Assembly: GCA_014240065.1 (NCBI GenBank)
Contig: JAAZXR010000031.1
Coordinates: 1-53,451, forward strand
DNA from: Myxococcales bacterium
GTDB taxonomy: Bacteria; Myxococcota_A; Polyangia; Nannocystales; Nannocystaceae
DNA length: 53,451 bases
Direction of reading: 5' to 3'
The notes under the pieces are model-generated. The model did no database searches, was not told the DNA's origin, and saw nothing but the letters and a program-made list of their open reading frames with translations. Below are positions 12,606 to 32,828 of the stretch, piece after piece. Both the position numbers and the translations under genes were made by a program. Positions within the stretch are counted from its first letter, which is position 1, and the number at the start of each line of letters is the position of its first letter.

Positions 12606-13852
12606 TGGAGCGCCCGAACGTGCTCGTGATCGGCGCTGGGCCGGCAGGGAGCTGCGCCGCCGCGATGCTGGCGAAGGGCGGGCTGTCCGTGCAGGTTGTT
12701 GAAGCTCAGCAGTTTCCACGCTTTGTGATCGGCGAGAGCTTGCTCCCGCAGTGTATGGACATCCTCGCAGAAGCTGGGCTCGTGGAACGGGTCGAGCAGG
12801 CGGGATATCAGATAAAAACTGGGGGGACCTTCCGTCACCGTGAAAAGACGGAGATCTTTGATTTCTCACAGACCTTCACGGATGGCTGGGACTATACGTA
12901 TCAGGTGATGCGCGATCGTTTCGATCAGCTCCTCGTCGATGGCGCGAAGGAGATGGGAGCGCAGGTCGCCTTTGGGCACCGCGTGGAATCTGTGGACTTC
13001 GGCGGTGACGCGCCGACCGTGGTCGTCGCCTCGGAGGGCGGAGAGTCACACACTGTTCGGCCGGAGTTCGTGATCGACGCCAGCGGCTACGGGCGTGTAT
13101 TGCCGAGGCTCCTTGGGTTGGAGGCGAGCGCAGGGATGGCAGGGCGCACCTCCGTTTTTTGTCACATCCGCGACGATGGGGAGCTCGCCCTCGACTATCG
13201 CCGGATCTCAATCCTCATTCACCCGGAGATTCACGAGGTTTGGTACTGGCATATTCCGCTTCACGCGGGGCGATCATCGGTGGGAGTGGTCGGACCTGAT
13301 AGCTACTTCGAGCGCTTCGGAGGGGACCATGAGGCGGCGCTTCGGACCGCGATGAGCGAGCTCTCCGATTTTGCTCAAGCGTTCCCAACTCCAGAGTTCT
13401 TGTTCCCTGTTCAGCGGAAGACGGCCTTCGCGAAGGCGGTGAGCCGGATGTGTGGCCCTGGGTACGCGATCTTGGGTAACGCCGGGGAGTTTCTCGATCC
13501 TGTGTTTTCGTCCGGGGTGACCGTCGCGCTCAAGTCGGCGAGTCTCGCGAGCCGCGCCCTGCTACGAGAACGGGCCGGGGAGACGGTGGACTGGGAGCAG
13601 GCGTATGAGGCGGAGTTACGGCGCGGAATTGACGTGTTCAAAACCTACGTCAACGCCTGGTATGGCGGTACGCTCCAGCGGATCTTCTTCGCTGAACAGA
13701 AGGTAGAATCGGTCAAGCGCAAGATCTGTTCGGTGCTCGCGGGCTACGCTTGGGATCGTGACAACGAATACGTAGCCAGTCACGCGCGGGTCATGCAGGC
13801 GCTGGGGAGTCTCTTCGGGGGAGAGGGCGCGAGCGGGCGTCTCGACCAGTAG
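12605..13852 (+). CDS. Flavin-dependent halogenase-like oxidoreductase
   Basis: 415-residue single-component flavoprotein. The N-terminus VLVIGAGPAGSCAA is a Rossmann FAD site, GESLLPQC follows near 43-50, and WYWHIP at 213-218 fits the WxWxIP pattern of FADH2-dependent halogenases. Geranylgeranyl reductases and hydroxylases of the same superfamily usually lack that motif, so chlorination or hydroxylation of the aromatic head group or polyene chain are both possible. I cannot locate the halogenase active-site lysine with confidence. No flavin reductase is encoded nearby. The ATG follows directly on the exporter stop (TAATGG), and a more upstream start would lie in the exporter gene. Confidence 0.75.
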   Translation: MERPNVLVIGAGPAGSCAAAMLAKGGLSVQVVEAQQFPRFVIGESLLPQCMDILAEAGLVERVEQAGYQIKTGGTFRHREKTEIFDFSQTFTDGWDYTYQVMRDRFDQLLVDGAKEMGAQVAFGHRVESVDFGGDAPTVVVASEGGESHTVRPEFVIDASGYGRVLPRLLGLEASAGMAGRTSVFCHIRDDGELALDYRRISILIHPEIHEVWYWHIPLHAGRSSVGVVGPDSYFERFGGDHEAALRTAMSELSDFAQAFPTPEFLFPVQRKTAFAKAVSRMCGPGYAILGNAGEFLDPVFSSGVTVALKSASLASRALLRERAGETVDWEQAYEAELRRGIDVFKTYVNAWYGGTLQRIFFAEQKVESVKRKICSVLAGYAWDRDNEYVASHARVMQALGSLFGGEGASGRLDQ

Positions 13853-15075
13853 TGGATCAGATGGTGAACGGACGGATACATGATGCCGAGAGATGTGTGC
13901 TGGCTGCCCACGGCACGGTGAGCGCGGTCGGCCGGGGATCTGCGGAGGTGCGCCGGTGCCTTCGCGGGCTGGAGATGCCAGATTTTCAGGTGCTCGGCGA
14001 CGTGCTGCCCTCACGGGAGGTGTTGTTCGGTGCGGTGCGAGGAGACCTGCCCAATACTCCTGAGCATCTCTCGCGCTACGACAGCCGGAATTCTCGGCTG
14101 CTCTTGGCCGCATACCACCAGATCGATGCTGAGGCCGCTCACGCCGTTGAGCGCTGGGGAGCGCGCCGTGTGGGGGTCGTCCTGGGAACGAGCACCTCGG
14201 GGATCTCCGCCGGCGAGGCGGCGATATCACAGTTCACGGAGACTGGTACGTGGCCCGAGGGCTTCGACTACGTGTCGCAGGAGATGGGGGCTCCCGCCAA
14301 ACTCATCGCGGAGTATGTGGGCGTTCGCGGGCCCGCTTATTCAATCTCAACGGCGTGCTCGTCCAGCGCGCACGCTCTCGCGAGCGCGCGCGGGTTGATT
14401 CGCGCGGGGATCTGCGACGCCGTGATCACGGGTGGAGTGGACTCCTATTGTCGAATGACGCTCGCTGGGTTCGCGTCGCTCAACCTGGTCGGCCATGGGC
14501 GCACCAACCCCATGTCCGCGAACCGCGACGGCATCAACATCGGGGAGGCCGCGTCCGTGTTCTTGATGACACGCGGAGGTGAGGGGCCTGAGCTTGTCGG
14601 CGCGGGGAGCTCGAGCGACGCCTATCATATGTCGTCACCGGAGCCCAACGGGGCGGGCGCGCTGGCGAGCATGAGGGCGGCGCTCGCTGACGCGGGACTC
14701 TCGAGCGCCGACATCTCCTACGTCAACTTGCATGGCACGGGGACCGTGCAAAACGACGCGATGGAGAGTCTGGCTGTCGCCGAACTGTTTGGTGACACCC
14801 GGTGCAGCTCGACCAAGCCCCTGACAGGCCACACGCTCGGGGCGGCCGGAGCGCTGGAGCTTGGGCTGTGCTGGGAGATGCTGGAGAGCCCGGGCCCGTC
14901 GTACTCGCTGCCGGTGCATCATTGGGATGAGGTGAGAGACCCTAGCTTGGCGCCCGTGCAGCTTGTGACGCCACTGACGCGAGAACTGTCGCAGGGTGTC
15001 CGCCGCTACGTGTTGAGTAATTCGTTCGCCTTTGGTGGTAACAATTGTAGCCTAATTCTAGGAGCGCGAACGTGA
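13852..15075 (+). CDS. Beta-ketoacyl-ACP synthase (ApeO type)
   Basis: Elongating ketosynthase of 407 residues with the nucleophile Cys169 in STACSSSAHA, the first His in NLHGTGT and the second in GHTLGAAG, so the Cys-His-His triad is complete. It has a longer, unusual N-terminus compared with FabF (about 75 residues before the core). It probably pairs with the short chain-length-factor protein encoded first in the operon. GTG start overlaps the preceding TAG. Confidence 0.85.
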   Translation: MDQMVNGRIHDAERCVLAAHGTVSAVGRGSAEVRRCLRGLEMPDFQVLGDVLPSREVLFGAVRGDLPNTPEHLSRYDSRNSRLLLAAYHQIDAEAAHAVERWGARRVGVVLGTSTSGISAGEAAISQFTETGTWPEGFDYVSQEMGAPAKLIAEYVGVRGPAYSISTACSSSAHALASARGLIRAGICDAVITGGVDSYCRMTLAGFASLNLVGHGRTNPMSANRDGINIGEAASVFLMTRGGEGPELVGAGSSSDAYHMSSPEPNGAGALASMRAALADAGLSSADISYVNLHGTGTVQNDAMESLAVAELFGDTRCSSTKPLTGHTLGAAGALELGLCWEMLESPGPSYSLPVHHWDEVRDPSLAPVQLVTPLTRELSQGVRRYVLSNSFAFGGNNCSLILGART

Positions 15076-15536
15076 GCGACGTAGCAGCCGTGACAGCGAT
15101 TACCGATCTCATCCCGCACCAGGGCCGGATGGTCTTGTTGGATTCCCTCATCGAACACACGGAGGAGAGGACCGTGTGTCGCGTCGTGATCGGCCGCGGC
15201 TCGATGTTCATCGACGAGCGAGGAATCGTGCCGAATTGGGTGGGGATTGAATACATCGCGCAGACAATCGCGGCCTACTCTGGCTGCGAGGCCATCCGGC
15301 GCGGTGACCCAGTATCGGTTGGGTTCTTGTTGGGGACTCGAACCCTGCGGTTCCACGCGCCTCATTTCTCGTGCGGGCAGCGCTTGCTCGTAGAAGCGTG
15401 GAGCCGATGGAGCAACGAAGAGCTGGGCGCGTTCGACGGCTCAATCCGTGATGAGACGAGCGGCGCGCTCATGGTTGAGGGGAGGGTGACCGTCTATCAG
15501 CCGCGTGAACCAGAGGCATTTCTAAATGGTGGATGA
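15072..15536 (+). CDS. 3-hydroxyacyl-ACP dehydratase (ApeP type)
   Basis: FabZ/ApeP-like hotdog protein of 154 residues. ITDLIPHQGRMVLLDSLIEH (about 11-30) contains the catalytic His region of the family, and GIEYIAQTIAAYSG near 57-70 the central helix. With the dehydratase domain of the ligase fusion this makes two dehydratases, which in E. coli aryl-polyene synthesis work as a heterodimer (ApeI/ApeP). GTG start overlaps the preceding stop (GTGA), and the C-terminus overlaps the ketoreductase gene by 11 bases. Confidence 0.85.
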   Translation: MSDVAAVTAITDLIPHQGRMVLLDSLIEHTEERTVCRVVIGRGSMFIDERGIVPNWVGIEYIAQTIAAYSGCEAIRRGDPVSVGFLLGTRTLRFHAPHFSCGQRLLVEAWSRWSNEELGAFDGSIRDETSGALMVEGRVTVYQPREPEAFLNGG

Positions 15537-16266
15537 AGCAAAACGGTGGGTGTTGGTGACCGGCTCGAGTCGGGGCATTGGGCGAGCGATCGCGCGGAGG
15601 CTCGCGGGCTCCGGCTTTCACGTGGTCGTACACTGCCGCGGTAACGTCGATGCCGCGCGCGAGACGGTCGCCGCTGTACAGCGCGCGGGTGTCGAGGCGA
15701 GGATGCTTCAATTTGACGTCTGTGATCGAGACCACGCGCGGGCGACGATTGAGGCCGATATGGCGGCCCATGGCGCGTATTACGGCGTCGTCTGCAACGC
15801 AGGGATCACCGCAGATGCGGCGTTCCCCGCGATGAGCGCGGAGCAATGGGATGGCGTGGTCGCGACGGCGCTGCATGGGTTTTACAACGTGCTCCATCCG
15901 ACCGTGATGCCGATGATTCGACGGCGCGACGGCGGGCGAATTGTGACGATTTCGTCGGTCTCCGGGCTCGTGGGAAATCGTGGTCAGGTGAACTACAGCG
16001 CCGCGAAGTCTGGAGTCATGGGCGCGACCAAGGCGCTCGCGCTCGAGCTCGCGAAGCGCCAGATCACCGTGAATTGTGTCGCGCCAGGCTTAATCGAGAC
16101 GGACATCGTGGCAGAGGATCTCCCCGTCGAAGAAATTCTCAAGGCCGTCCCGATGCGCCGGATGGGGAGCCCCGAGGAGGTCGCGGGGGTGGTCGGGTTC
16201 CTGTTCTCGTCGGAGGCGTCGTATGTGACGCGTCAGGTGATCTCTGTGAACGGAGGACTTATTTAA
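15526..16266 (+). CDS. 3-oxoacyl-ACP reductase (FabG/ApeQ type)
   Basis: Short-chain dehydrogenase of 246 residues. Cofactor motif TGSSRGIGRAIA near 11-22 with an Arg after the Ser pair suggests NADPH. Catalytic Ser is in ISSVSG (near 144-149) and Tyr157/Lys161 are in YSAAKSG. It reduces the beta-keto group formed at each extension round before dehydration to the conjugated double bond. Its stop TAA shares the A with the next ATG. Confidence 0.9.
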   Translation: MVDEAKRWVLVTGSSRGIGRAIARRLAGSGFHVVVHCRGNVDAARETVAAVQRAGVEARMLQFDVCDRDHARATIEADMAAHGAYYGVVCNAGITADAAFPAMSAEQWDGVVATALHGFYNVLHPTVMPMIRRRDGGRIVTISSVSGLVGNRGQVNYSAAKSGVMGATKALALELAKRQITVNCVAPGLIETDIVAEDLPVEEILKAVPMRRMGSPEEVAGVVGFLFSSEASYVTRQVISVNGGLI

Positions 16267-17492
16267 TGAAGCGAGTCGTTGTGACAGGCATGGGCGGCAT
16301 CTCTCCGCTCGGACAAGACTGGGAGACAGTCGACGCGCGGCTTCGAAGTCGAGAGAACGCGATCAGCGTCATCGGTGAGTGGGATCGTATTGAGGGGCTG
16401 GGCACGAGGCTGGGAGGGAGAGTCTTCGATTTCGAAGCGCCATCGCACTACACTCGCAAACAGACGCGCACCATGGGACGCGTCGCGTTGATGGCAGTGC
16501 GTGCGTCGGAGCGAGCGCTTGAGGATGCCGGACTCCTCGAGGATCCGTGCATTCGAGACGGTCGCATGGGCGTCTCCTACGGATCGTGTACCGGAAGCAC
16601 AGACGCGATTCTCGATCTCGCCGCCCTGCGGAGCGAAGGCAACACGCGGCGGATCAACGCGACCAGCTACATCCGGATGATGAGCCATACGTGCGCGGTG
16701 AATATCGAGCTCTTCTTCGAACTCAAAGGTCGGGTGATCCCGACCTCGAGCGCATGTACATCTGGGAGTCAAGGCATCGGCTACGCCTACGAGGCGATCA
16801 AGCACGGCTATCAGGAGATCATGCTGGCCGGCGGCGGCGAAGAGCTCTGCGTATCTCAGGCGGCCGTCTTTGATGTCATGTTCGCGACCAGTCGCGCCAA
16901 CGACACGCCGGACAAGAGCCCTCGGCCATTTGATGAGGCGCGCGATGGGCTGGTGATCGGCGAGGGGGCGGGGACGCTGGTCCTCGAATCACTCGAGCAC
17001 GCGCAGGCGCGGGGCGCGAGCATCTACGCAGAGGTTGTGGGATTCGGCACCAATTCAGACGGCGCGCACGTCACCCAGCCGTCGGCAGCCACGATGCAAC
17101 GGGCGATGGAGCTCGCCCTTGAGAGCGCGCAGGTGGACGCCCAAGCGGTGGGCTACGTCAACGCGCATGCGACCGCGACGACCGTGGGAGATGTCGCCGA
17201 GTCAAGGGCTACCCAGGCGGTGTTTGGGGGCCAACTGCCGATCAGTTCGCTCAAGAGCTACATCGGACACACCCTCGGGGCGAGCGGCGCCCTGGAGGCG
17301 GCGATGACGATCCGGATGATGAATCAAGACTGGTACGCACCGACGGTCAATCTGGCGAAGGTTGATGAGCGCTGCGGCGAGCTGGACTACATCATGGGGC
17401 AGGGTCGTCGCATGAGTAACGAGCACGTCATGTCGAACAATTTTGCCTTCGGTGGAATTAACACCTCATTGGTGTTTCGTCGCTGGCGCTGA
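16266..17492 (+). CDS. Beta-ketoacyl-ACP synthase (ApeR type), last gene of the pigment operon
   Basis: 408-residue FabF-like ketosynthase. Nucleophile Cys164 lies in TSSACTSGSQ and the second His in GHTLGASG; the first His is in NAHATATT, where the usual HGTGT is HATAT. That substitution is common among aryl-polyene ApeR-like enzymes as far as I recall, and the His itself is kept. Presence of a full Cys-His-His triad in both full-length ketosynthases suggests separate starter and extender duties. The frame extends far upstream into the ketoreductase gene, but the ATG at 16266 precedes the conserved N-terminus VVVTGMGGISPLG. Confidence 0.9.
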   Translation: MKRVVVTGMGGISPLGQDWETVDARLRSRENAISVIGEWDRIEGLGTRLGGRVFDFEAPSHYTRKQTRTMGRVALMAVRASERALEDAGLLEDPCIRDGRMGVSYGSCTGSTDAILDLAALRSEGNTRRINATSYIRMMSHTCAVNIELFFELKGRVIPTSSACTSGSQGIGYAYEAIKHGYQEIMLAGGGEELCVSQAAVFDVMFATSRANDTPDKSPRPFDEARDGLVIGEGAGTLVLESLEHAQARGASIYAEVVGFGTNSDGAHVTQPSAATMQRAMELALESAQVDAQAVGYVNAHATATTVGDVAESRATQAVFGGQLPISSLKSYIGHTLGASGALEAAMTIRMMNQDWYAPTVNLAKVDERCGELDYIMGQGRRMSNEHVMSNNFAFGGINTSLVFRRWR

Positions 17493-19175: not shown

Positions 19176-22100
19176 TCACGTGTCCTCGGGTGGTGTGGCG
19201 TTGGAGCCCCGGCCGGTGGCCCCGTAGACCGCGGGGAGGACCAGCAGCGTGAGCACGGTCGCGCTGACGACCCCCCCGATGACCACGGTGGCGAGCGGAC
19301 GTTGGACCTCCGAGCCCGGCGCGGTGGACAGGGCCATGGGGATGAAGCCGAGCACGTCGGTGAGCGCGGTCATAAACACGGCGCGCAACCGCAGCCGCGC
19401 GGCAGACTCGATGGCGACGCCCGACGGGCGCCCCTTGGCCTCTTCGCGCCGCGCCACCGTGACGAGCACCAGGCCGTTGAGGACGGCGACGCCGAACAGC
19501 GCGATGAACCCGACCCCCGCGGAGATCGAGAAGGGGATCCCCCGGATCCACAGCGCCGCCACACCGCCCACCAGGGCGAAGGGCACCGTGAGGAGCACGA
19601 TGGCCACCGGACGCACCGCGGCAAACGCAGACCACAGCAAGAACACGATGAAGGCGAGGGCGATGGGGACGACCCACATCAGCCGGGTCTTCGCCTCTTC
19701 GTAGTGGCGGAATGTCCCGCCCCATTCGATGTGATAGCCGGTGTCGAGGCTCACCTTGTCTCGCACGGCGCGCTGCGCGTCCGCGACCACGGACGCGAGG
19801 TCTCGCCCCTCCACGTTGAACTCCACCACGATGCGCCGTGACATGGCCTCACGGTTGATGGCGGCGGGGCCCGGGACAAAGCGCAGCGTCGCCACGTCGC
19901 CGAGGGGCACCACGTGTCCGTTCATGGTGCGCAGCGGCACGCTCGAGAGGGCCTCAAGGTCACCTTGAGGTTGATGGTCGACCACCACACGGATCGCGAA
20001 TCGCCGATCTCCCTCAAGCACCTGGCCCGCTTGATGACCGACGGCCATGGCCTCGGCGGCGAGGTTGACGTCGGCCACAGACAGCCCGTAGCGCGCGAGC
20101 TTGTTGCGGTCGGGCTCGATGCGAAGGTAGCGAAGACCCGCGACTTGCTCGCTGCGGGCGTCGACGACGCCGGGGATGTCGGCGATGGCGCGCAACACCT
20201 CGTCCCCCGACGCCACCAAGCGGTCGAGGTCGGGGCCGTAGACGAGGACGCCCACGTCGGAGCGCACCCCCGCCACGAGCTCGTTCGTACGCATCTCGAT
20301 GGGCTGTGAGATCGAGGCGGCGACGTCGGGGACCGCCGCCTCCACGGCGTGTCGAATCTCGTCGGCGAGGTCGGCCTTGGTCAAGCCGGGCCGCCAGTCC
20401 TCGTTGTCCTTGAGCTTGATATAGACGTCGGTCTGCTCGATGCCCATGGCGTCCGTGGCGAGATCCGGGGAGCCCGTCTTGCACACCACGCGATCCACCT
20501 CGGGGATCGGGAGGATGGCGAGCTGCAGGCGATGGTCTTGGGCCACCGCCTCACTCAGGGCGACGCCCGGAAGCCGCCGCGCCTCGACGAGGATGTCGCC
20601 CTCGTCGAGCTGCGGCACGAACTCGGCGCCGAGCCGGGCGAAGCCGACAGCCGCGAGCACCGTCAAGGCGACGCCCCCTGCGATGGCCGCGGCCCGCCGC
20701 CGCAGGGCGAGGGAGAGGATGGGCTCGTAGATGGCGGTGACCGCCCGCATGAGCAGCGTCTCGCGGCGCTCGGGATCCGGTCGCAGCACCAGGCTCGCGA
20801 CCACGGGTACGAACGTGATCGACAGGATGAACGCGCCGATCAGCGCGAGCAGGACGGTGGTCGCCATGGGCGTGAAGAGCTTGCCCTCGGTGCCTGTGAG
20901 CGTGAGGATCGGGACGTAGACGATGGCGATGATGGCCTCGCCGTACAGGGTGGGCTTGCGGACCTCCATGGTCGCGCGCCGCACCACCTCCGTGCGTCTC
21001 TCGCGATCGAGCGGCCCCTCGGCGGCGCGCGCGTCTCGCAGCCGTCGAGAGGCGTGCTCCACGACGATCACAGATCCGTCCACGATGATCCCGAAGTCGA
21101 GGGCCCCGAGGCTCATGAGGTTGCCCGACAGCCCCATGGCCTCCATCACCGTGACGGCGAACAGCATGGACAAGGGGATGATGGAGGCGACGATGAGCCC
21201 CGCGCGGACATCCCCGAGCAAGAGCAGCAAGATGAGCACCACGAGCGCGGCGCCCTCGAGGAGGTTGGTGATGGCCGTGCGGATCGTCCGGTTCACGAGG
21301 CGGGTGCGGTCGTAGAAGACATCGACCTCTGTGCCCTCGGGGAGTGAGGACTGGAGGGACGCGATCTTGGCCTCGACCGCCTTGGCCACGACGCGGGGGT
21401 TCTCGCCCATCAGCATGAGGGTGATGCCGCTGACGACCTCACCCTCGCCGTCCATGGACGCGGCGCCGCGTCGCATGCGACCGCTGAACCGCACCTCGCC
21501 GATGGAGGCGACCGTGATGGGGGTGCCCTGGGGGGTCGCGCCGAGGACCACCGCCAACAGGTCTTCGCGGTTGGTGACGAGCCCCTGGGTGCCGATGACG
21601 AAGTGCTCGCGGTCGCGCTCGATATATCCGCCGCCGGCGTTGGCGTTGGTGCTCTCGATGGCCTCTACCACCTGCTTGGTAGAGAGCCCCGCGGCCCGCA
21701 TGAGGTCGGGGTTGAGCACCACCTGGTACTCGCGCTCAAGCCCGCCGTGCGAATTCACCTCGACCACACCGGGGACCGAGCGCACCTGGGGTCCGATGTA
21801 CCAGGTCAGCAGCTCTTGGAGCTCCATCAAGGAGAGGTCCTCGTTGCGGACCACAAATTGATAAATCTCGCCGAGCCCCGTGCTGATCGGGCCCATCTCG
21901 GGCTCGCCGTAGCCGGGAGGCACAGCGCTCCTCGCCTCGGCCATCCGTTCGCTCACGAGCTGTCGGGCGAAATAGATGTCGGTCTCGTCGTGGAACACCA
22001 CGGTCACCACGCTCACGCCGTACTTGGACAGCGAGCGCACCTCATCCACCTCGGGGATGCCCTGGAGAGATCGCTCCACAGGGATGCTGATGTACTGCTC

Positions 22101-22289
22101 GATCTCGAGGGGAGAGAGGGCGGGCGCGGAGGTGATCACCTGCACCTGAATATTGGTGACGTCGGGGACCGCGTCGATCGGCAGTCGCTTGGCGGCCCGG
22201 AGCCCCATGCCCACCAGCAACAAGGTGGCGAAGAGCACGAGCGCGCGATTTTTCAGCGACCCGTGGACGAGTGTACCGAGGAAATCCAT
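19176..22289 (-). CDS. Heavy-metal RND efflux pump (CzcA/CusA family)
   Basis: 1037-residue inner-membrane proton-metal antiporter. Twelve membrane helices are arranged as one plus a block of five, twice, with two large periplasmic loops. The helix-4 signature LGALDFGIIVDGSVIVVE (near 395-412) contains the conserved Asp residues of the HME-RND class; the DFG form is that of CzcA-type divalent-cation pumps, whereas monovalent Cu/Ag pumps differ, so Zn/Co/Cd is the better guess. It is the last gene of a four-gene minus-strand operon and starts 1 base after the stop of the membrane-fusion protein gene. Confidence 0.9.
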   Translation of the reverse strand: MDFLGTLVHGSLKNRALVLFATLLLVGMGLRAAKRLPIDAVPDVTNIQVQVITSAPALSPLEIEQYISIPVERSLQGIPEVDEVRSLSKYGVSVVTVVFHDETDIYFARQLVSERMAEARSAVPPGYGEPEMGPISTGLGEIYQFVVRNEDLSLMELQELLTWYIGPQVRSVPGVVEVNSHGGLEREYQVVLNPDLMRAAGLSTKQVVEAIESTNANAGGGYIERDREHFVIGTQGLVTNREDLLAVVLGATPQGTPITVASIGEVRFSGRMRRGAASMDGEGEVVSGITLMLMGENPRVVAKAVEAKIASLQSSLPEGTEVDVFYDRTRLVNRTIRTAITNLLEGAALVVLILLLLLGDVRAGLIVASIIPLSMLFAVTVMEAMGLSGNLMSLGALDFGIIVDGSVIVVEHASRRLRDARAAEGPLDRERRTEVVRRATMEVRKPTLYGEAIIAIVYVPILTLTGTEGKLFTPMATTVLLALIGAFILSITFVPVVASLVLRPDPERRETLLMRAVTAIYEPILSLALRRRAAAIAGGVALTVLAAVGFARLGAEFVPQLDEGDILVEARRLPGVALSEAVAQDHRLQLAILPIPEVDRVVCKTGSPDLATDAMGIEQTDVYIKLKDNEDWRPGLTKADLADEIRHAVEAAVPDVAASISQPIEMRTNELVAGVRSDVGVLVYGPDLDRLVASGDEVLRAIADIPGVVDARSEQVAGLRYLRIEPDRNKLARYGLSVADVNLAAEAMAVGHQAGQVLEGDRRFAIRVVVDHQPQGDLEALSSVPLRTMNGHVVPLGDVATLRFVPGPAAINREAMSRRIVVEFNVEGRDLASVVADAQRAVRDKVSLDTGYHIEWGGTFRHYEEAKTRLMWVVPIALAFIVFLLWSAFAAVRPVAIVLLTVPFALVGGVAALWIRGIPFSISAGVGFIALFGVAVLNGLVLVTVARREEAKGRPSGVAIESAARLRLRAVFMTALTDVLGFIPMALSTAPGSEVQRPLATVVIGGVVSATVLTLLVLPAVYGATGRGSNATPPEDT

Positions 22290-22290
22290 C

Positions 22291-23502
22291 TCAGTGGTGG
22301 TCCTCTCCGAAGGTGTCGCGCAAGAGCACGCTCTTGACGGCGAAGGCCCCCTCGCTCACCACCTGCTCGCCGTCGTGGACGCCGTGCACGATCTCAGTGA
22401 ACGCGTGGTCCACCCGTCCGAGCACCACGTCGTGGACCTCAAAGTGCCCGTCGGCGTGTTGCACGAAGACGACGGGGGACTCCGCGATGCGGGTGACGGC
22501 GGAGTTCGGCACCGCGATCACCGGCTCGGTGGTCGCGCCAGCGGTGACCACGTGGGCCGCGCCGAACAGCCCGAGGCGGAGCTCGCCGCCCTCGTTGGTC
22601 AGCGGGATTCGAGCAGACAGGGTGCGGGCGCCGGGGTCTACGGCGTGAGAGACGTACTCCACGGTCCCCGCGAAGCGCCGCTCGGGGTACGCGTTGAGAG
22701 CCACGGAGGCCTCGCTGCCCGGGGCGACGCGGGCGACATCTCGCTCGAACACATGCGCCAAGAACCACACCTCGTCAGTGGCTGCCATGGTCGCAACGAC
22801 GCTCGCCGGTGTGACCGGGGCGCCGACGTCCACGTCGCGGGTGAGCACCACGCCGTCTCTGGGCGCGCGCACCTCGAAGAGCACGGCGCGACCCTGGGAC
22901 TTTAGCCCCAGCGCCCGGAGACGTTCGCGAGCGCCGCGGGCCTCCGCCTCGAGCGCGTCGGCGTCGGCGTCAGCGCTCACAGCTTCTTGCTGGCTCGCGA
23001 GGCGCTTGCCCGCGAGGTCCTGCAGTCGCTCGGCGTTGGCCCTCGCGGAGGTCGCCTTGGCGCGCAGGGCGGCCTCCGCGGCCCGGAGACTCTGAATATT
23101 GGGGGCGCGCACCGTGGCGATAAGGTCTCCACGAGAAACCGCGTCACCCGGTTGAACGCTGAAGCTCTCCATGACGCCTTCGACACGCGCCGCGGCGGTC
23201 GCTTGGCGGTCCGGGTGGACGACGATCTCGCCCGGCAGTCGGACCGTGGGTTTCAGCGCGCGCTTGGTCGCCGCCGCCGTCACGATCTTCGCCTGTGCGA
23301 TGACCTCAGGGGAGAGCGCCACCGTGCGCGGGAGCTGGTCGTGGCGATCTTCATGTGCATGTCCGTGCTCGTCACCGTGCGCGTCACCGTGCGCGTCACC
23401 GTGCGCGTCACCGTGCTCGTGTTTATCGCCGCCGCCGGCGGGACAGGCCGTGAGGATGAGGGGGAGGAGGAGCAGCGAGGTGAGGGAGATGGTCGTTTTC
23501 AT
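22291..23502 (-). CDS. Periplasmic membrane-fusion protein with His-rich N-terminus (CzcB/CusB type)
   Basis: 403 residues. A lipoprotein signal (MKTTISLTSL... with lipobox LTAC) is followed immediately by a His/Asp/Gly-rich tract of about 28 residues built on GDAH repeats, a likely metal-binding tether. The rest is a standard adaptor: beta-barrel, lipoyl and alpha-hairpin domains (AAEAALRAKATSARANAERL region), with membrane-proximal C-terminus. The ATG at 23502 is chosen because AGAAGG lies just upstream and the signal begins there; it overlaps the preceding stop (ATGA). It links the RND pump to the TolC-type channel. Confidence 0.9.
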   Translation of the reverse strand: MKTTISLTSLLLLPLILTACPAGGGDKHEHGDAHGDAHGDAHGDEHGHAHEDRHDQLPRTVALSPEVIAQAKIVTAAATKRALKPTVRLPGEIVVHPDRQATAAARVEGVMESFSVQPGDAVSRGDLIATVRAPNIQSLRAAEAALRAKATSARANAERLQDLAGKRLASQQEAVSADADADALEAEARGARERLRALGLKSQGRAVLFEVRAPRDGVVLTRDVDVGAPVTPASVVATMAATDEVWFLAHVFERDVARVAPGSEASVALNAYPERRFAGTVEYVSHAVDPGARTLSARIPLTNEGGELRLGLFGAAHVVTAGATTEPVIAVPNSAVTRIAESPVVFVQHADGHFEVHDVVLGRVDHAFTEIVHGVHDGEQVVSEGAFAVKSVLLRDTFGEDHH

Positions 23503-24755
23503 GGTGCACCTTCTTGGAGTGGGTGGCCGGCGGCGAGGGCGAGCGCGACGGCGGCGCGGCACAGGCCGTGCTTGGATTCCACCGCGCGCAAGAGCATGCG
23601 CAAGAGCGCGTGTTGGGTGAGGAGGGCGTCGCGGACGGGGAGGGTGCCGCGCTCGATCTCAGAGGCGAGGGTGTCGAGGCTGGCGCGCGCGGAGCTCTCC
23701 GCGTCGGGGCGGTAGGCGTTGGCGGCGCTCTTGTGGGCCTCGTAGTCGTGGAAGGCGGCGGTCGCCTCGAGCGTGACGCGGCGCTGCGTGGAGGCGAGGC
23801 GGGCGCTGGATTCGTCGATGCGCGCGCGCGCGCCGTCGATCTCCCCCTTGTTCGTGCGGCCGAGGGGGAAGGGGAGCGGGATCGGCATGGACAGGCCACC
23901 ACCGATGACGCGCTCGTTAAAACCGTCGGTCTGGGCGAAGATGGACAGCGCGGGGGAGGGGACGCGACCGCGTTTGAGCAGCGCGAGCTCGGCCTGGGCC
24001 TGCTCTGTTTGGGCCCGTTGTTGGGCGAGTTCTGGGCGAGCGGCGGCGCTTTGAGTGGACACCGCGAGGTCTTCGGGCACATCCACGGGGGTCAGATCGC
24101 CGATCACGTCCGGCAGCGAACCCGCGGGGTCGAGCCCGAGGGCGCTCGCGAGGCGGGCCTCGGCCGCACGGACGGCGCCGGTCGCCAAGGCTTGTTGCTC
24201 TTGCAGCGCGGCGACCTCCGCGGCGGCCAAGTCGGTGTCGAGCGGCATCCCGAGCCCTGCCGTGGCGCGGGCGCTGGCCACCTCTTGCATCTGTAGGGCG
24301 GTGGCGTGTCCCTGCGAGATCACCACAAGCTCCGCGCGCGCGGCGAGCACGTCGTAGTAGGCCAGGAGCGCGCGGGCGATGACGTCGCGCGTGCTCGCCT
24401 CAAGCCCGCCCTCACGTTGCGCGACGAGGGCGTCGGCGGCGTCTTTGCGTTGGCGCCGTTGACCGGAGATCTCCAGGCGCTGTGACAAGGTGCCGGCCAC
24501 GTTGAGCGCGCGGTCGTCGTTGGTGTTCCAGCGCTGACCCACGGTGACCGAGACGGTGGGATTGGACGGGAGGATCACACGCGCGGCGTCGGAGAGGCCG
24601 CGCGCGGCGTCGACGCTCGCTCGCGCGGCGACGAGCCGAGGGCTGGAGGCCGCAGCGCAGTCAACCACCGCCGCCCGAGTGAGCGGGCCGGCGCACGGCT
24701 CACTCGGACTCGATGTGACCGTCATCATGAGGAGAAGGGGATGAAACAAAGGCAT
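23499..24755 (-). CDS. TolC-family outer-membrane efflux protein (CzcC/CusC type)
   Basis: 418 residues with a short N-terminal signal (MPLFHPLLLMMTVTSSPS) and two long alpha-helical repeats typical of the OEP family, rich in Ala, Arg, Glu and Gln. It forms the outer-membrane channel of the efflux complex. Alternative start codons nearby cannot be excluded, since the signal is short and lacks a clear lipobox. It is separated from the Cys-rich gene upstream by 190 bases. Confidence 0.85.
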   Translation of the reverse strand: MPLFHPLLLMMTVTSSPSEPCAGPLTRAAVVDCAAASSPRLVAARASVDAARGLSDAARVILPSNPTVSVTVGQRWNTNDDRALNVAGTLSQRLEISGQRRQRKDAADALVAQREGGLEASTRDVIARALLAYYDVLAARAELVVISQGHATALQMQEVASARATAGLGMPLDTDLAAAEVAALQEQQALATGAVRAAEARLASALGLDPAGSLPDVIGDLTPVDVPEDLAVSTQSAAARPELAQQRAQTEQAQAELALLKRGRVPSPALSIFAQTDGFNERVIGGGLSMPIPLPFPLGRTNKGEIDGARARIDESSARLASTQRRVTLEATAAFHDYEAHKSAANAYRPDAESSARASLDTLASEIERGTLPVRDALLTQHALLRMLLRAVESKHGLCRAAVALALAAGHPLQEGAP

Positions 24756-24945
24756 GGGGAGTGTGGATCCGCAGGGGAGAGAAGCGCGCGCGGGCGAATC
24801 TCTCCGCGGCGTTCACCAGGGGGTGCGCGCGTGGCCAGCCTCGAGATCTCGGGGTGCCCGCGCGCGTGGATGACCTCGGCGAGGCAACCCCAACACAGCG
24901 CTGACAGCTGTGCGGTGCGTCGACTCGCGCGGGTCAAAGATTCGC

Positions 24946-25356
24946 TCACGCTCGGGGCGGTCGGTCGATGCGGGCGCGCACACCCTCGCGTACTTCGAGG
25001 TCGTCGCTGCAGGCGCACCGCAGGTCGTTGTCGGAGTAGTTCGGGAGGACCGGAGCATGGCTCGTGGCGCCCACCACGTTGGGACAACATCCACACGAGT
25101 GCAGGGCTCCCATGCAGTCCGCGTCCTCACATCCGCCGTCGTCACAGTCCTCGCAGGGGCCCTCGTGTTCCCCGTCGTCGCAGCCTTCGGCGTCTGCTTG
25201 AGAGGAGCTGCACGGGTCGTCCCCGATGCTCGCCGCGGCGGCCACGTCGCAGACACCACCCCACACGCACAGCACGACGGCTGCGACCACCACGGTCGCC
25301 GAGCATCGGCCAAGGGCAGCGAGCATTCGTCGAATCGGGTGGTCGAGATTGGACAC
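24946..25356 (-). CDS. Exported Cys/Asp-rich protein at head of metal-efflux operon
   Basis: 136 residues with a clear membrane or signal segment (residues about 12-42). The mature part is dense in Cys, Asp, Glu and His: EGCDDGEHEGPCEDCDDGGC followed by CMGALHSCGCCPN. I count more than ten cysteines. The composition and its position as first gene of the efflux operon suggest metal binding or sensing in the periplasm; no known family is recognised. Alternatively it is a disulfide-rich protein unrelated to metals. Two further ATG codons just inside could serve as starts. Confidence 0.6.
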   Translation of the reverse strand: MSNLDHPIRRMLAALGRCSATVVVAAVVLCVWGGVCDVAAAASIGDDPCSSSQADAEGCDDGEHEGPCEDCDDGGCEDADCMGALHSCGCCPNVVGATSHAPVLPNYSDNDLRCACSDDLEVREGVRARIDRPPRA

Positions 25357-25567
25357 AGGGTCGGCTCCGCCGCGCGAGTGTACGAAGGGGACAGGGCGTC
25401 GCGCAACCGAGGCCCTGCCTCCTCACGTCACCGAATAATGCGTAGTGATTCAAGGGGCTTCGCAGAGCGGGCGCCGTGACTGGCCAGCGCGTCCCGCGAG
25501 GGGCGGCGCGAGGCGGCCGAGGATGGGTGTGGTTCACCATCAAGCTGCGATGTACGCTGCCGCTGCC

Positions 25568-27562: not shown

Positions 27563-28690
27563 ATGAAACGTATGTCGAGAATTGTCTTGTTGGTGTCTGG
27601 ATCCATTCTCGGTCTCACGGCTGGTGCGTGCGGAAAAAAATCGAGCCAAGCGGGTTGTGAGCCGGGCACACTTACTTGTGTCTGTGATGCGGGGTCCTGC
27701 GATGCTGGGTTGGAGTGCTTCTATAATGTATGTATCAGCGGCGTTGATACGAACTCCGCGGGCGAGTCGGACGACATCGGGGAAGATTCAGAGGGTGATA
27801 CCGCAGGAGGGTCGGTGACCGGTGCTCCTTCGACCTCAGGCGATGGAGACGGAGAGTCATCGAGCAGCGGCGACGGCGATGGAGACGGAGAGTCATCGAG
27901 CAGCGGCGACGGAGATGGCGACGGAGAGTCATCGAGCAGCGGCGACGGAGATGGCGATCCCAACACCAGTGGTGATGGTGATGACCCGTGCGCATCGTTC
28001 CTTGGCTGTCAAGATGTTCCGGCAGGGACCGTGATGTGTGACTTCTGGCTCCAAGATTGCCCTGCTGGCGAAAAATGCACGGCCATCCCCAGCACGCCAG
28101 GGAGTGGATCTTGGGACGCGAATGTCTGTGTCCCCGCGGGTACGCAGCCTCCCGGTTCGAGCTGCACGACGGTGTCTGGGGTGAATGGACAAGACACCTG
28201 TGACGAGTCAGGGATGTGCTACGACATCGATCCGAATACGGGTGTCGGCACCTGCACCGAATTTTGTGTGGGGACGGCGCAGTCGAATTCGTGTCCACAG
28301 ACCGGGAATGAGTGCAATATGCTCAACAACGGCGTACTCAACCTCTGCTTGCCCGATTGCAATCCGCTCAACGCGGGGGAGTGTCCACCGGGACAGATCT
28401 GTGTGGCTGCGTACCAGGGCTCCAGCCTCGGAGGTTTCATCTGCTTCCCACCAGCGGCCCAGGGGACGTCGGGGGAGGAGTGCACGTGCGCGAACTGTTG
28501 CGCCGAGGGGCACTTGTGCACGGACGCGGGCTCGTACGGGGTCGATTGTGCGTTTAACCTGTGTTGCACCGAGTATTGCGATCTCAACGATGGGAGCTTC
28601 ACCTGCCAAGGGACAGGCCAGGTGTGCGTCCCGCTGTTTAGCGCCTCGGATCCCAACTTTGCGAACGTCGGGGCGTGTCTGGTCCCATGA
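27563..28690 (+). CDS. Lipoprotein with 12-residue GDGDGESSSSGD repeats
   Basis: 375 residues. N-terminal basic residues, hydrophobic core and lipobox LTAGAC; then CxC-rich stretches (CEPGTLTCVCDAGSCDAGLE), a repeated linker (residues about 93-140) and a large C-terminal Cys-rich domain with conserved-looking CxPGExCxxIP and CPPGQICV motifs. The architecture is the lineage-specific type found in Nannocystineae, in which many surface lipoproteins have such linkers. Function unknown; possibly surface or adhesive. Its ribosome site is AAGG. Confidence 0.75.
   Translation: MKRMSRIVLLVSGSILGLTAGACGKKSSQAGCEPGTLTCVCDAGSCDAGLECFYNVCISGVDTNSAGESDDIGEDSEGDTAGGSVTGAPSTSGDGDGESSSSGDGDGDGESSSSGDGDGDGESSSSGDGDGDPNTSGDGDDPCASFLGCQDVPAGTVMCDFWLQDCPAGEKCTAIPSTPGSGSWDANVCVPAGTQPPGSSCTTVSGVNGQDTCDESGMCYDIDPNTGVGTCTEFCVGTAQSNSCPQTGNECNMLNNGVLNLCLPDCNPLNAGECPPGQICVAAYQGSSLGGFICFPPAAQGTSGEECTCANCCAEGHLCTDAGSYGVDCAFNLCCTEYCDLNDGSFTCQGTGQVCVPLFSASDPNFANVGACLVP
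27841..27958 (+). repeat. 36-bp tandem repeat encoding GDGDGESSSSGD
   Basis: Three head-to-tail copies of a 36-base unit inside the lipoprotein gene, with only silent A/C changes between copies (GGCGATGGAGAC against GGAGATGGCGAC). The repeat preserves frame, so copy number could vary without a frameshift. Confidence 0.8.
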
Positions 28691-28970
28691 GTTCAGATTT
28701 CGACTGCTGCGATTGCAGACATGCGTCGTTGCCCTGAGGTGAGCCGAGCGCGCCGAACATCGTACTCTGAGCAGATCCACGGTACTGCGGCGCGAGGGCA
28801 CGTGCCCCGTCGGCACAAAACGGCCCGGTGGATTTTTATGGATCGGGTCCCTCGCTGTGGTCGCCACCACAAAACAATGGGAGCTTGAACTGAGGCTCAA
28901 GTTTGAGGATGCTGTCACGACTCCGTTGTTGGAACGGATGACAATTTCTTAAAAAGGAACGGTGGAAGAT
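28691..28970. other. Intergenic region upstream of 28971 lipoprotein
   Basis: No gene is supported. The last 30 bases are AT-rich with AAAAAGGA, which should serve as the ribosome site of the next gene. A short CTGC/GCAG hairpin is near 28706-28717. Confidence 0.4.
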
Positions 28971-29570
28971 ATGAAGTATCAGAGTATTTTGGTGTGTGCG
29001 GCGGCTGTTTCACTGACCGTCGGTTGTATGGAAACGACGGACGAAACCGTGGTGACGGTGGACCGCCTTGAGCAAGAAGGTCATGAGGTGACGTGGCTTG
29101 AGGAGGCGCAAGAAGAGGACGTGCCCGAGGGCCAAGGTTGTCCCACGGGTTGGGCAGACACCTCCCAAGTCGCGATCAAATGCGGCATCCCGACGGTGCT
29201 CGTGGTGAAGACCTTTGGTGGGGTGGAGTGCGCGACGTGCCAAGAGCCCAAGTGCGGCGGCCCGTGGACGTCCATCGCGACGCCCATCCTGTGCGCGCCT
29301 GGCTACGACCTTAAGCTCAACAACGCCGGCACGTGTCAGCGCTGCGTAAAGGGTGATGCCCAGTGTGCGCGTGGCGGATGCAGCGGACAAGTCTGCTATG
29401 ACACGTCCGAGTCACCACCCATCACGACCTGTGAGTACCTCCCAGAGTACGCGTGCTACGACAGCGCCAACTGCGGCCCATTTGGTCCTGGAGGTGCGTG
29501 CGCGTGGGAAGACACGCCAGCGCTCACGGCGTGCATCGACGCCGCTTCGGAGCCGCCAAAGCTCCCGTAG
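28971..29570 (+). CDS. Cys-rich lipoprotein
   Basis: 199 residues. MKYQSILVCAAAVSLTVGC gives a signal and lipobox ending at Cys19. The mature protein begins with an acidic Thr/Glu-rich segment, then about 16 cysteines in irregular spacing (CATCQEPKCGG, CQRCVKGDAQCARGGCSGQVC). I do not recognise a family. A GTG nine bases upstream (28962) is an alternative start. Possibly a surface protein held by disulfides. Confidence 0.65.
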   Translation: MKYQSILVCAAAVSLTVGCMETTDETVVTVDRLEQEGHEVTWLEEAQEEDVPEGQGCPTGWADTSQVAIKCGIPTVLVVKTFGGVECATCQEPKCGGPWTSIATPILCAPGYDLKLNNAGTCQRCVKGDAQCARGGCSGQVCYDTSESPPITTCEYLPEYACYDSANCGPFGPGGACAWEDTPALTACIDAASEPPKLP

Positions 29571-30947: not shown

Positions 30948-32828
30948 TCAGTTGTAGGTGAAGTCAGAGAGCACCAGGTACTCGTCAGTGATCTGTTCCA
31001 CGTCGAAGGAGAGGTTGAGCGTCTGAAAGTCCACGGAGATCGGGCCACTCATGGTGCCCGGGTCCGGGAGGTTGATCTTCTCCAGGAGCGTCGATTTTCG
31101 CTGGTAGTTCATCGTGTGCACCACGAGGCTGCGGTTGTAGCTGCGGTAGGGTGCCGCGAGGTCCATGGGATCGGAGGCGTCAAAGAACGGCGCCGGGATG
31201 TTTGGATCGACCTGCGATACGTAGCTCACGTGATACTGCGGGAGGCCATAAATGTTCGTGACGACAAACGCCATCGTCCCGCTCGAGGTGTTGAAGTTGA
31301 GTGGTGTGGTGGTAGGAGGATCGCCAGGGCTGTCTGCAGCGTGGAGACCGGTCAAAATGACCTGGGGGGCAGCGATGGAGTCGCTGCCATCGACGATCCA
31401 CTGCCAGGGCCACGAGGCTGCGGTGTTCGCGATCCCATCAGAGAAGACGCCCAGCCAATTGGCGTGGGCTGCGTTGTAGAGCCCAAAGTTCGAGCCCATG
31501 GAATTGGAGAGGTCACCGTAGGTGTAGGCGCCCGGCACCGGGAGGTAGGTGCTGGTGGTCCCCGCATGGTGCAGCCCAAAGTTATGGCCCAGCTCGTGGG
31601 TGTAGACCGCGCGGGGCTCGTAGCCACCAATGCCCGGGGCAGACACGCGGAGCATCATTTTCCAGAAACGCCTGTCTTGCTCTTGGAGTCCCGCCCCGAC
31701 ATACGCGACCCCCTGAAACCCGTAGCACTGATAGCCGGGCTCGGATCCCAGGTTCCACGGGGTCATGAGCGCCAGGCTGTCGTACATCTCGCAGTACGGC
31801 GCGTTATGGAATCCGGCCCAGGGATGCAGCGGGCCGACCCCACAGAACTTCTTAGGATCGCCGTTGGGGTCGAGGCCCAGGGCGCCCGCGTCTTCGAGTT
31901 TGGCGACGGCCCTATTGATCCATCTGCCGATCTGGTAGATGCAGTGGTAGCCGCGATCGTGGACGACCACCGGACCAAAGACATCCGCGTAGTCCTCCAC
32001 GCCATCGTCGTTGCGATCAAAGGTGAATTCGATCATGTGTCCGAAGATACGGTCGAGGAACGGCACCGCGCGGTCGATGATCTCCGCTTGTACGAAGCTT
32101 GGAGCCCATGGATCGCTGACGATATTGCCGCCGCGCTCGACCTCGATCTGGACGAGGGCGAGCCGGCGCTCCGAGCTCTCGCACAATCCGGTGTGCTCCG
32201 GCGGGACGCTCCCGGGGACGTTGCCGGGGTTTTCCGCCGGGACCTGCCCGGGGAATTCGCAGGGGACGTTGTCCGGGGCTTGGCCCGGAAATGGGGAGGG
32301 GGGGCCGTTGCCGTTGTCGCCGCTGTTGCTGCCGCCGTTGCCGTTGCCACCGCCGTTGCTGCCGCCGCTGTTACCGCCGCCGTTGCCGTTCTCCATGAGC
32401 TCGACCACTTCGGCTTCGACCAGCGGAGGAACCGTAGAGTTCCCTTTTTTGTGCGGGCCGCGGATCCGCACCAGCGCGTGTGAAGGGATGTGCTCGAGCG
32501 CGGAGAGCGGCAGCCCAGAGGTGTCGACCACCACGAACTCGCCGTTGGACTCCAAGACGCCGAATATCATCCCGCGGTCGGAGGACTCCATACGCATCCC
32601 TGGCAGCGACGCGATCCTATCATCGGTGATCCCGTCCACGACGATGATCGACCACGAGCCTTCAACCACGTCTGCGGACGCAGGCGTGGCGGCCGCGGCG
32701 GGACTCGCCCCAGCGTTCGCTTCGGCCGAGGCGGCAAGAGAACCAGAATAGATTGCGAACAATCCGAATGTCGCGGCAAACAATCGAATACCGGGACGAC
32801 AGTGATACCCAAGATGTGAACTACCCAT
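30948..32828 (-). CDS. Secreted zinc metalloprotease (metzincin, gametolysin-like)
   Basis: 626 residues. A signal peptide (residues about 14-38) is followed by a 110-residue N-terminal domain, a Gly/Asn-rich linker (GGNSGGSNGGGNGNGG, about 152-180), then a protease domain. HELGHNFGLHH near 410-420 is the HExxHxxGxxH zinc site and SMGS about 30 residues on is the expected Met-turn. This fits peptidase family M11 or a near relative; the C-terminal domain (about 480-626) is beta-rich. The protein probably degrades prey or environmental proteins. The linker and the N-domain are unusual for the family. Confidence 0.8.
   Translation of the reverse strand: MGSSHLGYHCRPGIRLFAATFGLFAIYSGSLAASAEANAGASPAAAATPASADVVEGSWSIIVVDGITDDRIASLPGMRMESSDRGMIFGVLESNGEFVVVDTSGLPLSALEHIPSHALVRIRGPHKKGNSTVPPLVEAEVVELMENGNGGGNSGGSNGGGNGNGGSNSGDNGNGPPSPFPGQAPDNVPCEFPGQVPAENPGNVPGSVPPEHTGLCESSERRLALVQIEVERGGNIVSDPWAPSFVQAEIIDRAVPFLDRIFGHMIEFTFDRNDDGVEDYADVFGPVVVHDRGYHCIYQIGRWINRAVAKLEDAGALGLDPNGDPKKFCGVGPLHPWAGFHNAPYCEMYDSLALMTPWNLGSEPGYQCYGFQGVAYVGAGLQEQDRRFWKMMLRVSAPGIGGYEPRAVYTHELGHNFGLHHAGTTSTYLPVPGAYTYGDLSNSMGSNFGLYNAAHANWLGVFSDGIANTAASWPWQWIVDGSDSIAAPQVILTGLHAADSPGDPPTTTPLNFNTSSGTMAFVVTNIYGLPQYHVSYVSQVDPNIPAPFFDASDPMDLAAPYRSYNRSLVVHTMNYQRKSTLLEKINLPDPGTMSGPISVDFQTLNLSFDVEQITDEYLVLSDFTYN

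What the first reader, a model, noticed from the sequence alone, without database searches (positions are those of the whole stretch)
24946..25356. Cys/Asp-rich exported protein heading a heavy-metal efflux operon
A 136-residue protein with dense CxC/CC/EDCDD patterns precedes the TolC-type, His-rich adaptor and CzcA-type genes. It could be a periplasmic metal sponge or sensor that hands ions to the pump. I know of no named family with this pattern.
Basis: partly seen in the sequence, partly recalled or inferred. Interest (0 to 1): 0.5.

Follow-up and report, generated by a model that had tools for sequence, protein, structure and literature searches.

The report
Metal-sensing leader protein of efflux operon
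A small, probably exported, cysteine-rich protein encoded just ahead of a heavy-metal pump operon in an uncultured myxobacterium looks like a relative of the copper-sensing leader proteins known from other bacteria, which tune the next genes while they are being made.

Summary
The ORF (24946-25356, minus strand, GTG start, 136 aa) is real and heads an OEP - CzcB-like adaptor - CzcA-like operon. The window protein has HSCGCC and ends RIDRPPRA, with 41 residues between the last core Cys and Pro-Pro. Pfam and NCBIfam miss it, but profiles built without it score it above all background ORFs and shuffles tried. A profile matches 93 of 317 genomes of the class; 57 of 60 fetched hits have pump-operon genes downstream. 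In 14 of 14 distant relatives whose profile match stopped before the tail, the tail is still Pro-Pro rich. Best reading: a leader that senses metal during synthesis or export and adjusts pump expression. That mechanism is inferred: the tail is RPPR, not the proven RAPP arrest motif, and no hairpin hiding the next start is evident in the window. A stable CzcI-like modulator or a sponge remains possible. New member of a known kind.

The parts
24946..25356 (-). Small CutF-like leader gene, 136 aa, GTG start, stop at 24946-24948
   Evidence: frame kept in G001; homologue ahead of an OEP gene in G004
25365..25368 (-). GGAG, likely ribosome-binding site, 8 nt before the GTG
25249..25299 (-). Hydrophobic stretch, residues 20-36, probable export signal
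   Evidence: in the single-sequence AlphaFold model the only helix with pLDDT above 50 is residues 6-32
25084..25116 (-). Core metal-site candidate: C81-x4-H86-x-C88-G-C90-C91
   Evidence: alignment A4; coordinates
24949..24963 (-). C-terminal tail RPPRA, codons directly before the stop
24756..24945 (-). 190-nt gap before the OEP gene, more structured than shuffles (z -2.88), with a predicted hairpin about 24770-24808
23499..24755 (-). Outer membrane efflux protein (OEP, PF02321)
22291..23562 (-). CzcB-like adaptor with His-rich N-terminus
19176..22289 (-). CusA/CzcA-family RND transporter (TIGR00914, 1117 bits), carrying LDFGIIVDGSVIVVE

Best explanation
It is a CutF-like leader protein (upstream ORF) of a CzcCBA-type metal efflux operon. 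Shown by sequence: a small gene immediately upstream of the pump genes, a hydrophobic N-terminus, a Cys/His core (HSCGCC), and a Pro-Pro tail at the stop codon with 41 residues between them; this layout recurs ahead of metal-export operons in many genera of the phylum. Inferred: while the chain is being made and exported, the Cys/His site meets metal ions; bound metal changes how fast the chain leaves the ribosome at the Pro-Pro tail; the position of that ribosome, acting on the structured 190-nt gap, sets how much OEP, adaptor and pump is made. The ion is probably a divalent one (Zn, Co, Cd or Ni) rather than Cu or Ag, judging from the pump's Asp/Asp/Glu motif (meaning of the motif recalled). 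The finished protein is probably short-lived.
For: Membership: a profile of 25 relatives chosen without any use of the window protein or G004 gives the window protein E 0.0017; larger sets, also without these two rows but gathered with a profile that held them, give 1.5e-6 (85) and 1.9e-4 (10 subfamily members). Under each model the window protein beat all 361 background ORFs (best 0.87 over the models) and all 4000 shuffles (best 2.9e-4, under the 85-row model); 1000 further shuffles under the 25-row model reached 0.015 at best. Neighbours: 57 of 60 profile-found loci have RND, adaptor or OEP homologues on the same strand downstream. In Pfam, 33 of 59 next ORFs match OEP and 22 of 59 HlyD_D23. 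Chance loci, somewhat shorter: 1 of 26. Layout: last core Cys to Pro-Pro, median 42 residues, quartiles 39-44, in the 79 of 87 that could be measured; window 41. Tail: Pro-Pro within the last 15 residues in 14 of 14 distant members whose match did not reach the tail, against 14.9% of 2939 six-frame fragments. Published models: CutF needs its CxxxC, Pro-rich tail and signal peptide for control of cutO, and OEP is the commonest next gene of CutF-like proteins (PMC9973294, passages and sections 10-12); CruR needs CXXC for the copper response and RAPP for expression of the next gene (PMC9426467, passages). Gaps after these genes fold better relative to shuffles (mean z -1.07, n 85) than stretches inside the following gene (-0.19), p 1.3e-5.
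Against: No experiment on any Myxococcota member was found. The tail is RPPR, and only 6 of 87 members have RxPP (RAPP-like) in the last 15 residues, while the arrest shown in vitro for CruR was abolished by mutating RAPP (PMC12992588, passages). CutF's own tail did not stall ribosomes in a fusion test (PMC9973294). In the window the OEP start region is predicted mostly unpaired (0.57-0.81), the tail codons show no special complementarity to the downstream RNA, and the family shows none either (n 76, p 0.71). The OEP start has no obvious Shine-Dalgarno sequence to hide. C>G bias near the OEP start is weak. No Pfam or NCBIfam family matches. Upstream of the best-matching complete OEP relative (G013, 53%) and of six g12 genomes of the same family no ORF passed my filter. 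L094 has no pump gene in the roughly 3.2 kb held downstream.
Confidence: 0.55

Rival explanations
1. A stable periplasmic modulator of the pump, like CzcI, which is described as quenching CzcCBA so that essential Zn and Co are not over-exported. The Cys/His core binds metal and the mature protein acts on the pump in trans.
For: CzcI is encoded upstream of czcC in the czc operon and is described as quenching the pump (PMC10127602, passages); the window pump carries the Asp/Asp/Glu motif (recalled as divalent type).
Against: CzcI is said to lack the C-terminal Pro motif (PMC9973294), whereas 80 of 87 members of our set, the window protein included, have Pro-Pro in the last 15 residues (26 of them were picked with that filter). 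No relevant NCBIfam match. The single-sequence AlphaFold model shows no folded domain (mean pLDDT 44.2), a weak point because no alignment was given.
Confidence: 0.25
2. A periplasmic metal sponge or chaperone that buffers ions or hands them to the His-rich adaptor.
For: 14 Cys and 24 acidic residues; His-rich adaptor encoded in the same operon.
Against: Three of the six Cys in the first 68 residues are not kept in the same genus. Across A2 the invariant or nearly invariant columns are three core Cys, one Gly and the tail. A sponge does not need a Pro-Pro tail at the stop codon.
Confidence: 0.13
3. A leader that works through Rho-dependent termination in the gap, as CruR does, rather than through translation of the OEP gene.
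For: Gap of 190 nt, close to the 162 nt of CruR; C exceeds G by 0.27 around the OEP start.
Against: 4.6% of 78-nt windows on this strand reach 0.20 or more, so the bias is not rare; the gap is structured, whereas rut sites are described as unstructured; the tail is not RAPP.
Confidence: 0.15
4. A spurious ORF in GC-rich DNA.
For: The stretch yields many long mechanical ORFs.
Against: Homologues in place in other genera and recurrent neighbours; third-position bias.
Confidence: 0.02

Closest known systems
CutF of Rhodobacter capsulatus and the CutF-like set (PMC9973294)
   Same: Small, N-terminal hydrophobic signal, central Cys site, Pro-rich tail ending close to the stop (CutF PEPEGPPPRL; window RPPRA), metal genes just downstream, OEP the commonest neighbour of the set
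   Different: CutF controls a multicopper oxidase and senses copper; its hairpin shields the cutO Shine-Dalgarno sequence, which is not evident in the window; CutF's sequence was not compared here
CruR of Bordetella pertussis (DUF2946, PF11162; PMC9426467)
   Same: 145 aa, Cys motif, Pro-Pro a few residues before the stop, 45 residues between CXXC and RAPP, 162-nt gap to the next gene
   Different: Window protein does not match PF11162; tail is RPPR, not RAPP; downstream are export, not uptake, genes. The relative L111 matches PF11162 along its length but below the cut-off (E 0.0033)
SilD of Cupriavidus metallidurans pMOL30 (L190:7024-7419)
   Same: Heads a TolC-adaptor-RND operon; Cys motif; PRPPPRPL within the last 20 residues; SilD is a labelled node of the CutF-like network
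   Different: Its pump has AVGAMVDAAVVMIE (recalled as Cu/Ag type); no profile similarity of A2 to it
CzcI of C. metallidurans
   Same: Heads a czcCBA operon
   Different: Said to lack the Pro-Pro tail and to quench the pump protein; its sequence was not fetched here
Unnamed leaders of Alteromonadaceae plasmids (Salinimonas P0003; Alteromonas L184:3120-3476)
   Same: Core DHCCSCHGH and ends IDRPPRA or IERPPRI ahead of TolC, adaptor and CusA/CzcA genes; A4 against P0003: probability 91.8, E 7e-7 for that one comparison
   Different: Different phylum; direct BLAST to the window protein aligns mainly IDRPPRA, E 0.006

Membership tests
CutF-like proteins (rules of PMC9973294) | Shorter than 150 residues | tested here: met
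   136 aa
CutF-like proteins (rules of PMC9973294) | Pro-Pro within the last 15 residues | tested here: met
   Ends RIDRPPRA; 80 of 87 of the set
CutF-like proteins (rules of PMC9973294) | N-terminal signal peptide | tested here: inconclusive
   Hydrophobic residues 20-36 after Arg; no predictor available
[quoted passage not shown]
   OEP gene 190 nt downstream
CutF-like proteins (rules of PMC9973294) | Cys/His metal site in the mature part | tested here: met
   C81, H86, C88, C90, C91 aligned with relatives; binding untested
CutF-like proteins (rules of PMC9973294) | Sequence link to the published clusters | not testable with these tools
   The 29 cluster profiles are not held; L111 (E 0.0033) and Sphingobium P0002 (E 0.0068) match DUF2946 below the cut-off
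CutF-type mechanism | Hairpin that shields the next gene's ribosome-binding site | tested here: inconclusive
   Gap structured (z -2.88) but start region mostly unpaired in prediction; in five genomes of genus g139 a hairpin abuts the GGAGGAG of the OEP gene, with little covariation
CutF/CruR-type mechanism | Metal-dependent control of the next gene through the Cys site and tail | not testable with these tools
   Needs reporter assays
DUF2946 (PF11162), CruR | Match to PF11162 | tested here: not met
   No match of the window protein; over the cut-off in 3 of 317 class genomes, not this one
DUF2946 (PF11162), CruR | C-terminal RAPP arrest motif | tested here: not met
   DRPPR instead; RxPP in 6 of 87
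CzcI | Match to an NCBI family model of a Czc head protein | tested here: not met
   Only an irrelevant weak hit in NCBIfam; that CzcI models exist there is recalled
HME-type RND operon | OEP, CzcB-like adaptor and CusA/CzcA transporter in order | tested here: met

The most novel reading that the evidence does not exclude
Myxococcota carry a large set of leader proteins that sense divalent metals (Zn, Co, Cd or Ni) co-translationally and use a Pro-Pro tail other than RAPP (RPPR, or APPxPPPxA in other genera of the phylum) as a new kind of metal-gated pause signal that sets expression of RND metal pumps.
Probability: 0.3. Interest if true: 0.65.

Novelty: new member of a known kind. Interest (0 to 1): 0.4.

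Why it matters
It turns a 'hypothetical protein' without a family into a testable regulator, and shows that this kind of leader is common at the head of metal-pump operons in a phylum that the main survey's text does not mention (no 'Myxococc' in its main text; its supplementary lists were not seen). Because the pump has the divalent-type motif and the tail is not RAPP, it offers a test of whether nascent-chain metal sensing extends beyond copper and beyond the known arrest motif.

Tried and rejected
Single-protein search: the window protein alone matched 31 of 59 relatives at E 1 or better, mostly at chance level; G001 and G004 are convincing, and the G053 hit (L004) later proved to be a family member by profile (L109). 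A DNA pattern for core and tail hit 6 of 317 genomes; I followed only the window and G004 matches and did not examine the other four. DUF2946 by Pfam: no match of the window protein. Profile comparison of A2 with SilD: nothing. Rho signature: weak. Complementarity of tail codons to downstream RNA: no excess, n 76, p 0.71; I had hoped the hairpin model would hold in the window, and it is not supported there. AlphaFold without an alignment: mean pLDDT 44.2, no fold search made.

Rows dropped. In one search, 29 of 53 OEP loci passed a text filter (Pro-Pro near the stop plus a Cys or His motif); I dropped L051, L072 and L077 by eye as Arg-rich wrong-frame ORFs, leaving 26. The profile later added L100, L148 and L150 next to OEP loci seen before. 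From I fetched 60 matches that were not in A2; others, from about E 6e-6 upward, were not fetched. In the spacing count 8 of 87 were set aside (7 without Pro-Pro near the end, 1 without Cys in range). Of the 20 loci, 14 entered the tail count: L205 was left out because its printed tail equals that of L204, and five because their profile match reached the tail.

Biases. 26 of the 87 were picked with the Pro-Pro filter and the other 60 with a profile made from them, so tail conservation in the 87 is partly built in; the 14 of 14 is the less biased test. The A2 and A4 profiles contain the window protein, so the tallies count it and the training genomes; only the 25-row model is free of it altogether.

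Full report
What is there. The genome is a relative of the Nannocystaceae (Myxococcota, Polyangia; taxonomy): the only named match of the OEP gene, 97% identical over residues 103-418, is a contig titled 'uncultured Nannocystaceae bacterium'. On the minus strand lie, in order, the 136-aa ORF (24946-25356), an outer membrane efflux protein (23499-24755), a CzcB-like adaptor with a His-rich N-terminus (22291-23562) and a CusA/CzcA-family transporter (19176-22289). The gap between the small ORF and the OEP start is 190 nt.

Is the small ORF a gene? Yes. It has a GGAG 8 nt before the GTG. In the same genus (G001) the frame is kept over 68 codons, 71% identical, with differences 6/10/20 at codon positions 1/2/3; the Met at residue 11 is Ile there, so the GTG is the likelier start. 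The G001 contig ends at residue 68. In another genus (G004) a homologue with HHCGCC and a VDRPPRV end lies ahead of an OEP gene.

A family emerges. Of 317 genomes of the class, 48 have an OEP match at E 1e-25 or better, the window's own included. I fetched 53 loci, of which 49 have at least 600 nt upstream of the OEP (values). 26 of these 49 carry a small ORF with a Cys or His motif and Pro-Pro near its stop, and three more were found by profile. The alignment A2 (27 rows) shows a hydrophobic N-terminus, a core such as CPPGCPxCHC, and an RPPR tail. Upstream of the OEP in six genomes of genus g12 and in G013 (the best-matching complete OEP, 53%) no ORF passed the filter, so the association is not universal; G013 does hold a family member elsewhere, also ahead of pump genes (L127).

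Neighbour test. The A2 profile matches 93 of 317 genomes, 58 of 151 genera, at E 1e-3 or better, training genomes included. Of 60 fetched matches that were not in A2, RND homologues follow in 55, adaptors in 54, OEP in 24, any of these in 57; without the three loci already seen through their OEP this is 54 of 57. Of the three misses, L121 has only 86 nt of contig downstream; L093 is followed by an 801-aa ORF, presumably the one next ORF in which Pfam finds a heavy-metal P-type ATPase; L094 has about 3.2 kb downstream without such a gene. Of the 59 next ORFs, Pfam finds OEP in 33, HlyD_D23 in 22 and ACR_tran in 1. Chance-level loci, with 1.5 kb on each side at most, show such a gene in 1 of 26.

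Does the window protein belong? A profile of 25 members chosen without it and without G004 gives E 0.0017; larger sets without these two rows give 1.5e-6 (85) and 1.9e-4 (10 subfamily members); adding G004 to the ten gives 1.4e-5. Under each model the window protein beats all 361 background ORFs and all 4000 shuffles. Its nearest relatives form a subfamily with, in most rows, C-x4-[HQ]-x-C-x-C-[CH], and ends such as GVRARLDRPPQA and GTRARLLRPPRA. That subfamily profile matches 35 of 310 genomes drawn from the phylum, 32 of 206 genera, the window's own included. Of 20 loci fetched, 19 have pump genes downstream and the twentieth ends at a contig edge. Outside the class the tail is often APPxPPPxA; in 14 of 14 distinct ORFs whose profile match stopped before the tail, Pro-Pro is still there within the last 15 residues, against 14.9% of 2939 six-frame fragments.

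Comparison with known systems. The published filters for CutF-like proteins are fewer than 150 residues, a putative signal peptide, Pro-Pro in the last 15 residues and a same-strand gene within 1000 nt (PMC9973294, sections 10-12). The window protein meets those that could be tested. That survey counts OEP as the most frequent next gene and labels SilD in its network. CutF control is shown to need its Cys motif, Pro-rich tail, signal peptide and a hairpin (PMC9973294, passages). CruR needs CXXC for the copper response and RAPP for expression of the next gene (PMC9426467, passages), and arrests translation in vitro (PMC12992588, passages). [quoted passage not shown] in our set the distance from last core Cys to Pro-Pro is looser: median 42, quartiles 39-44, 5th-95th percentile 23-46, window 41. 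SilD of pMOL30 has the same layout, and two Alteromonadaceae plasmids carry leaders ending IDRPPRA and IERPPRI ahead of TolC, adaptor and CusA/CzcA genes; other plasmid heads looked at are His-rich and less alike (Blastomonas, Sphingobium, Asticcacaulis).

Mechanism: what is shown and what is not. Gaps after these genes are more structured, relative to shuffles, than stretches inside the next gene, and the window gap is among the structured ones (z -2.88). In five genomes of genus g139 a hairpin abuts the GGAGGAG of the OEP gene; two of its pairs show changes on both sides, three are broken in two of the five sequences, and the covariation term of the whole fold is small (-0.12). In the window itself the OEP start region is predicted mostly open and has no obvious Shine-Dalgarno sequence, and tail codons show no special pairing with downstream RNA, nor does the family. 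The tail is RPPR; only 6 of 87 have RxPP. So a leader role is likely by layout, but the CutF hairpin model and the RAPP arrest model each fall short in a tested detail. The pump carries LDFGIIVDGSVIVVE, like a pMOL30 pump with LDFGLIIDGAVIIVE and unlike the pump behind SilD with IAVGAMVDAAVVMIE; that these mark divalent versus Cu/Ag pumps is recalled.

Novelty. Literature searches for CzcI with czcCBA, DUF2946, CutF/CzcI/SilD/CruR, CutF-like with copper and translation, CruR with copper, and Myxococcota with these terms listed no paper that, by title and abstract opening, describes these leaders in Myxococcota; most of these lists were capped (for example 20 of 113 and 15 of 42). The main survey's text does not contain 'Myxococc'; its supplementary lists were not seen. 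I therefore file it as a new member of a known kind, by layout rather than by a curated family match.

Noticed in passing
10248-17492: Plus-strand genes that look like an MMPL-type exporter, an FAD oxidoreductase, two ketosynthase-like proteins, a dehydratase-like protein and a ketoreductase; reminiscent of an aryl polyene or fatty-acid-type cluster (recalled, not searched; ORFs).
   Followed up: no
27563-28690: Cys-rich protein with a lipoprotein-like start and several near-exact DGDGDGESSSSG repeats between two Cys-rich parts.
   Followed up: no
28962-29570: Cys-rich small protein, closely similar to one at L002:576-1262 in the same-genus relative, where it lies a few hundred bases from the small leader gene.
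   Followed up: no
30948-32828: Protein with an HELGHNFGLHH zinc-protease-like motif and a Gly/Asn-rich linker.
   Followed up: no
L184:3120-3476: A leader gene ending QIERPPRI ahead of the TolC, adaptor and CusA/CzcA genes of an Alteromonas macleodii plasmid is missing from the listed (incomplete) annotation.
   Followed up: partly
L126, L134, L138, L148, L150, L151: Some family members replace the Pro-Pro tail by HVPK, HVPR or RIPR before the stop, a possible variant tail.
   Followed up: no
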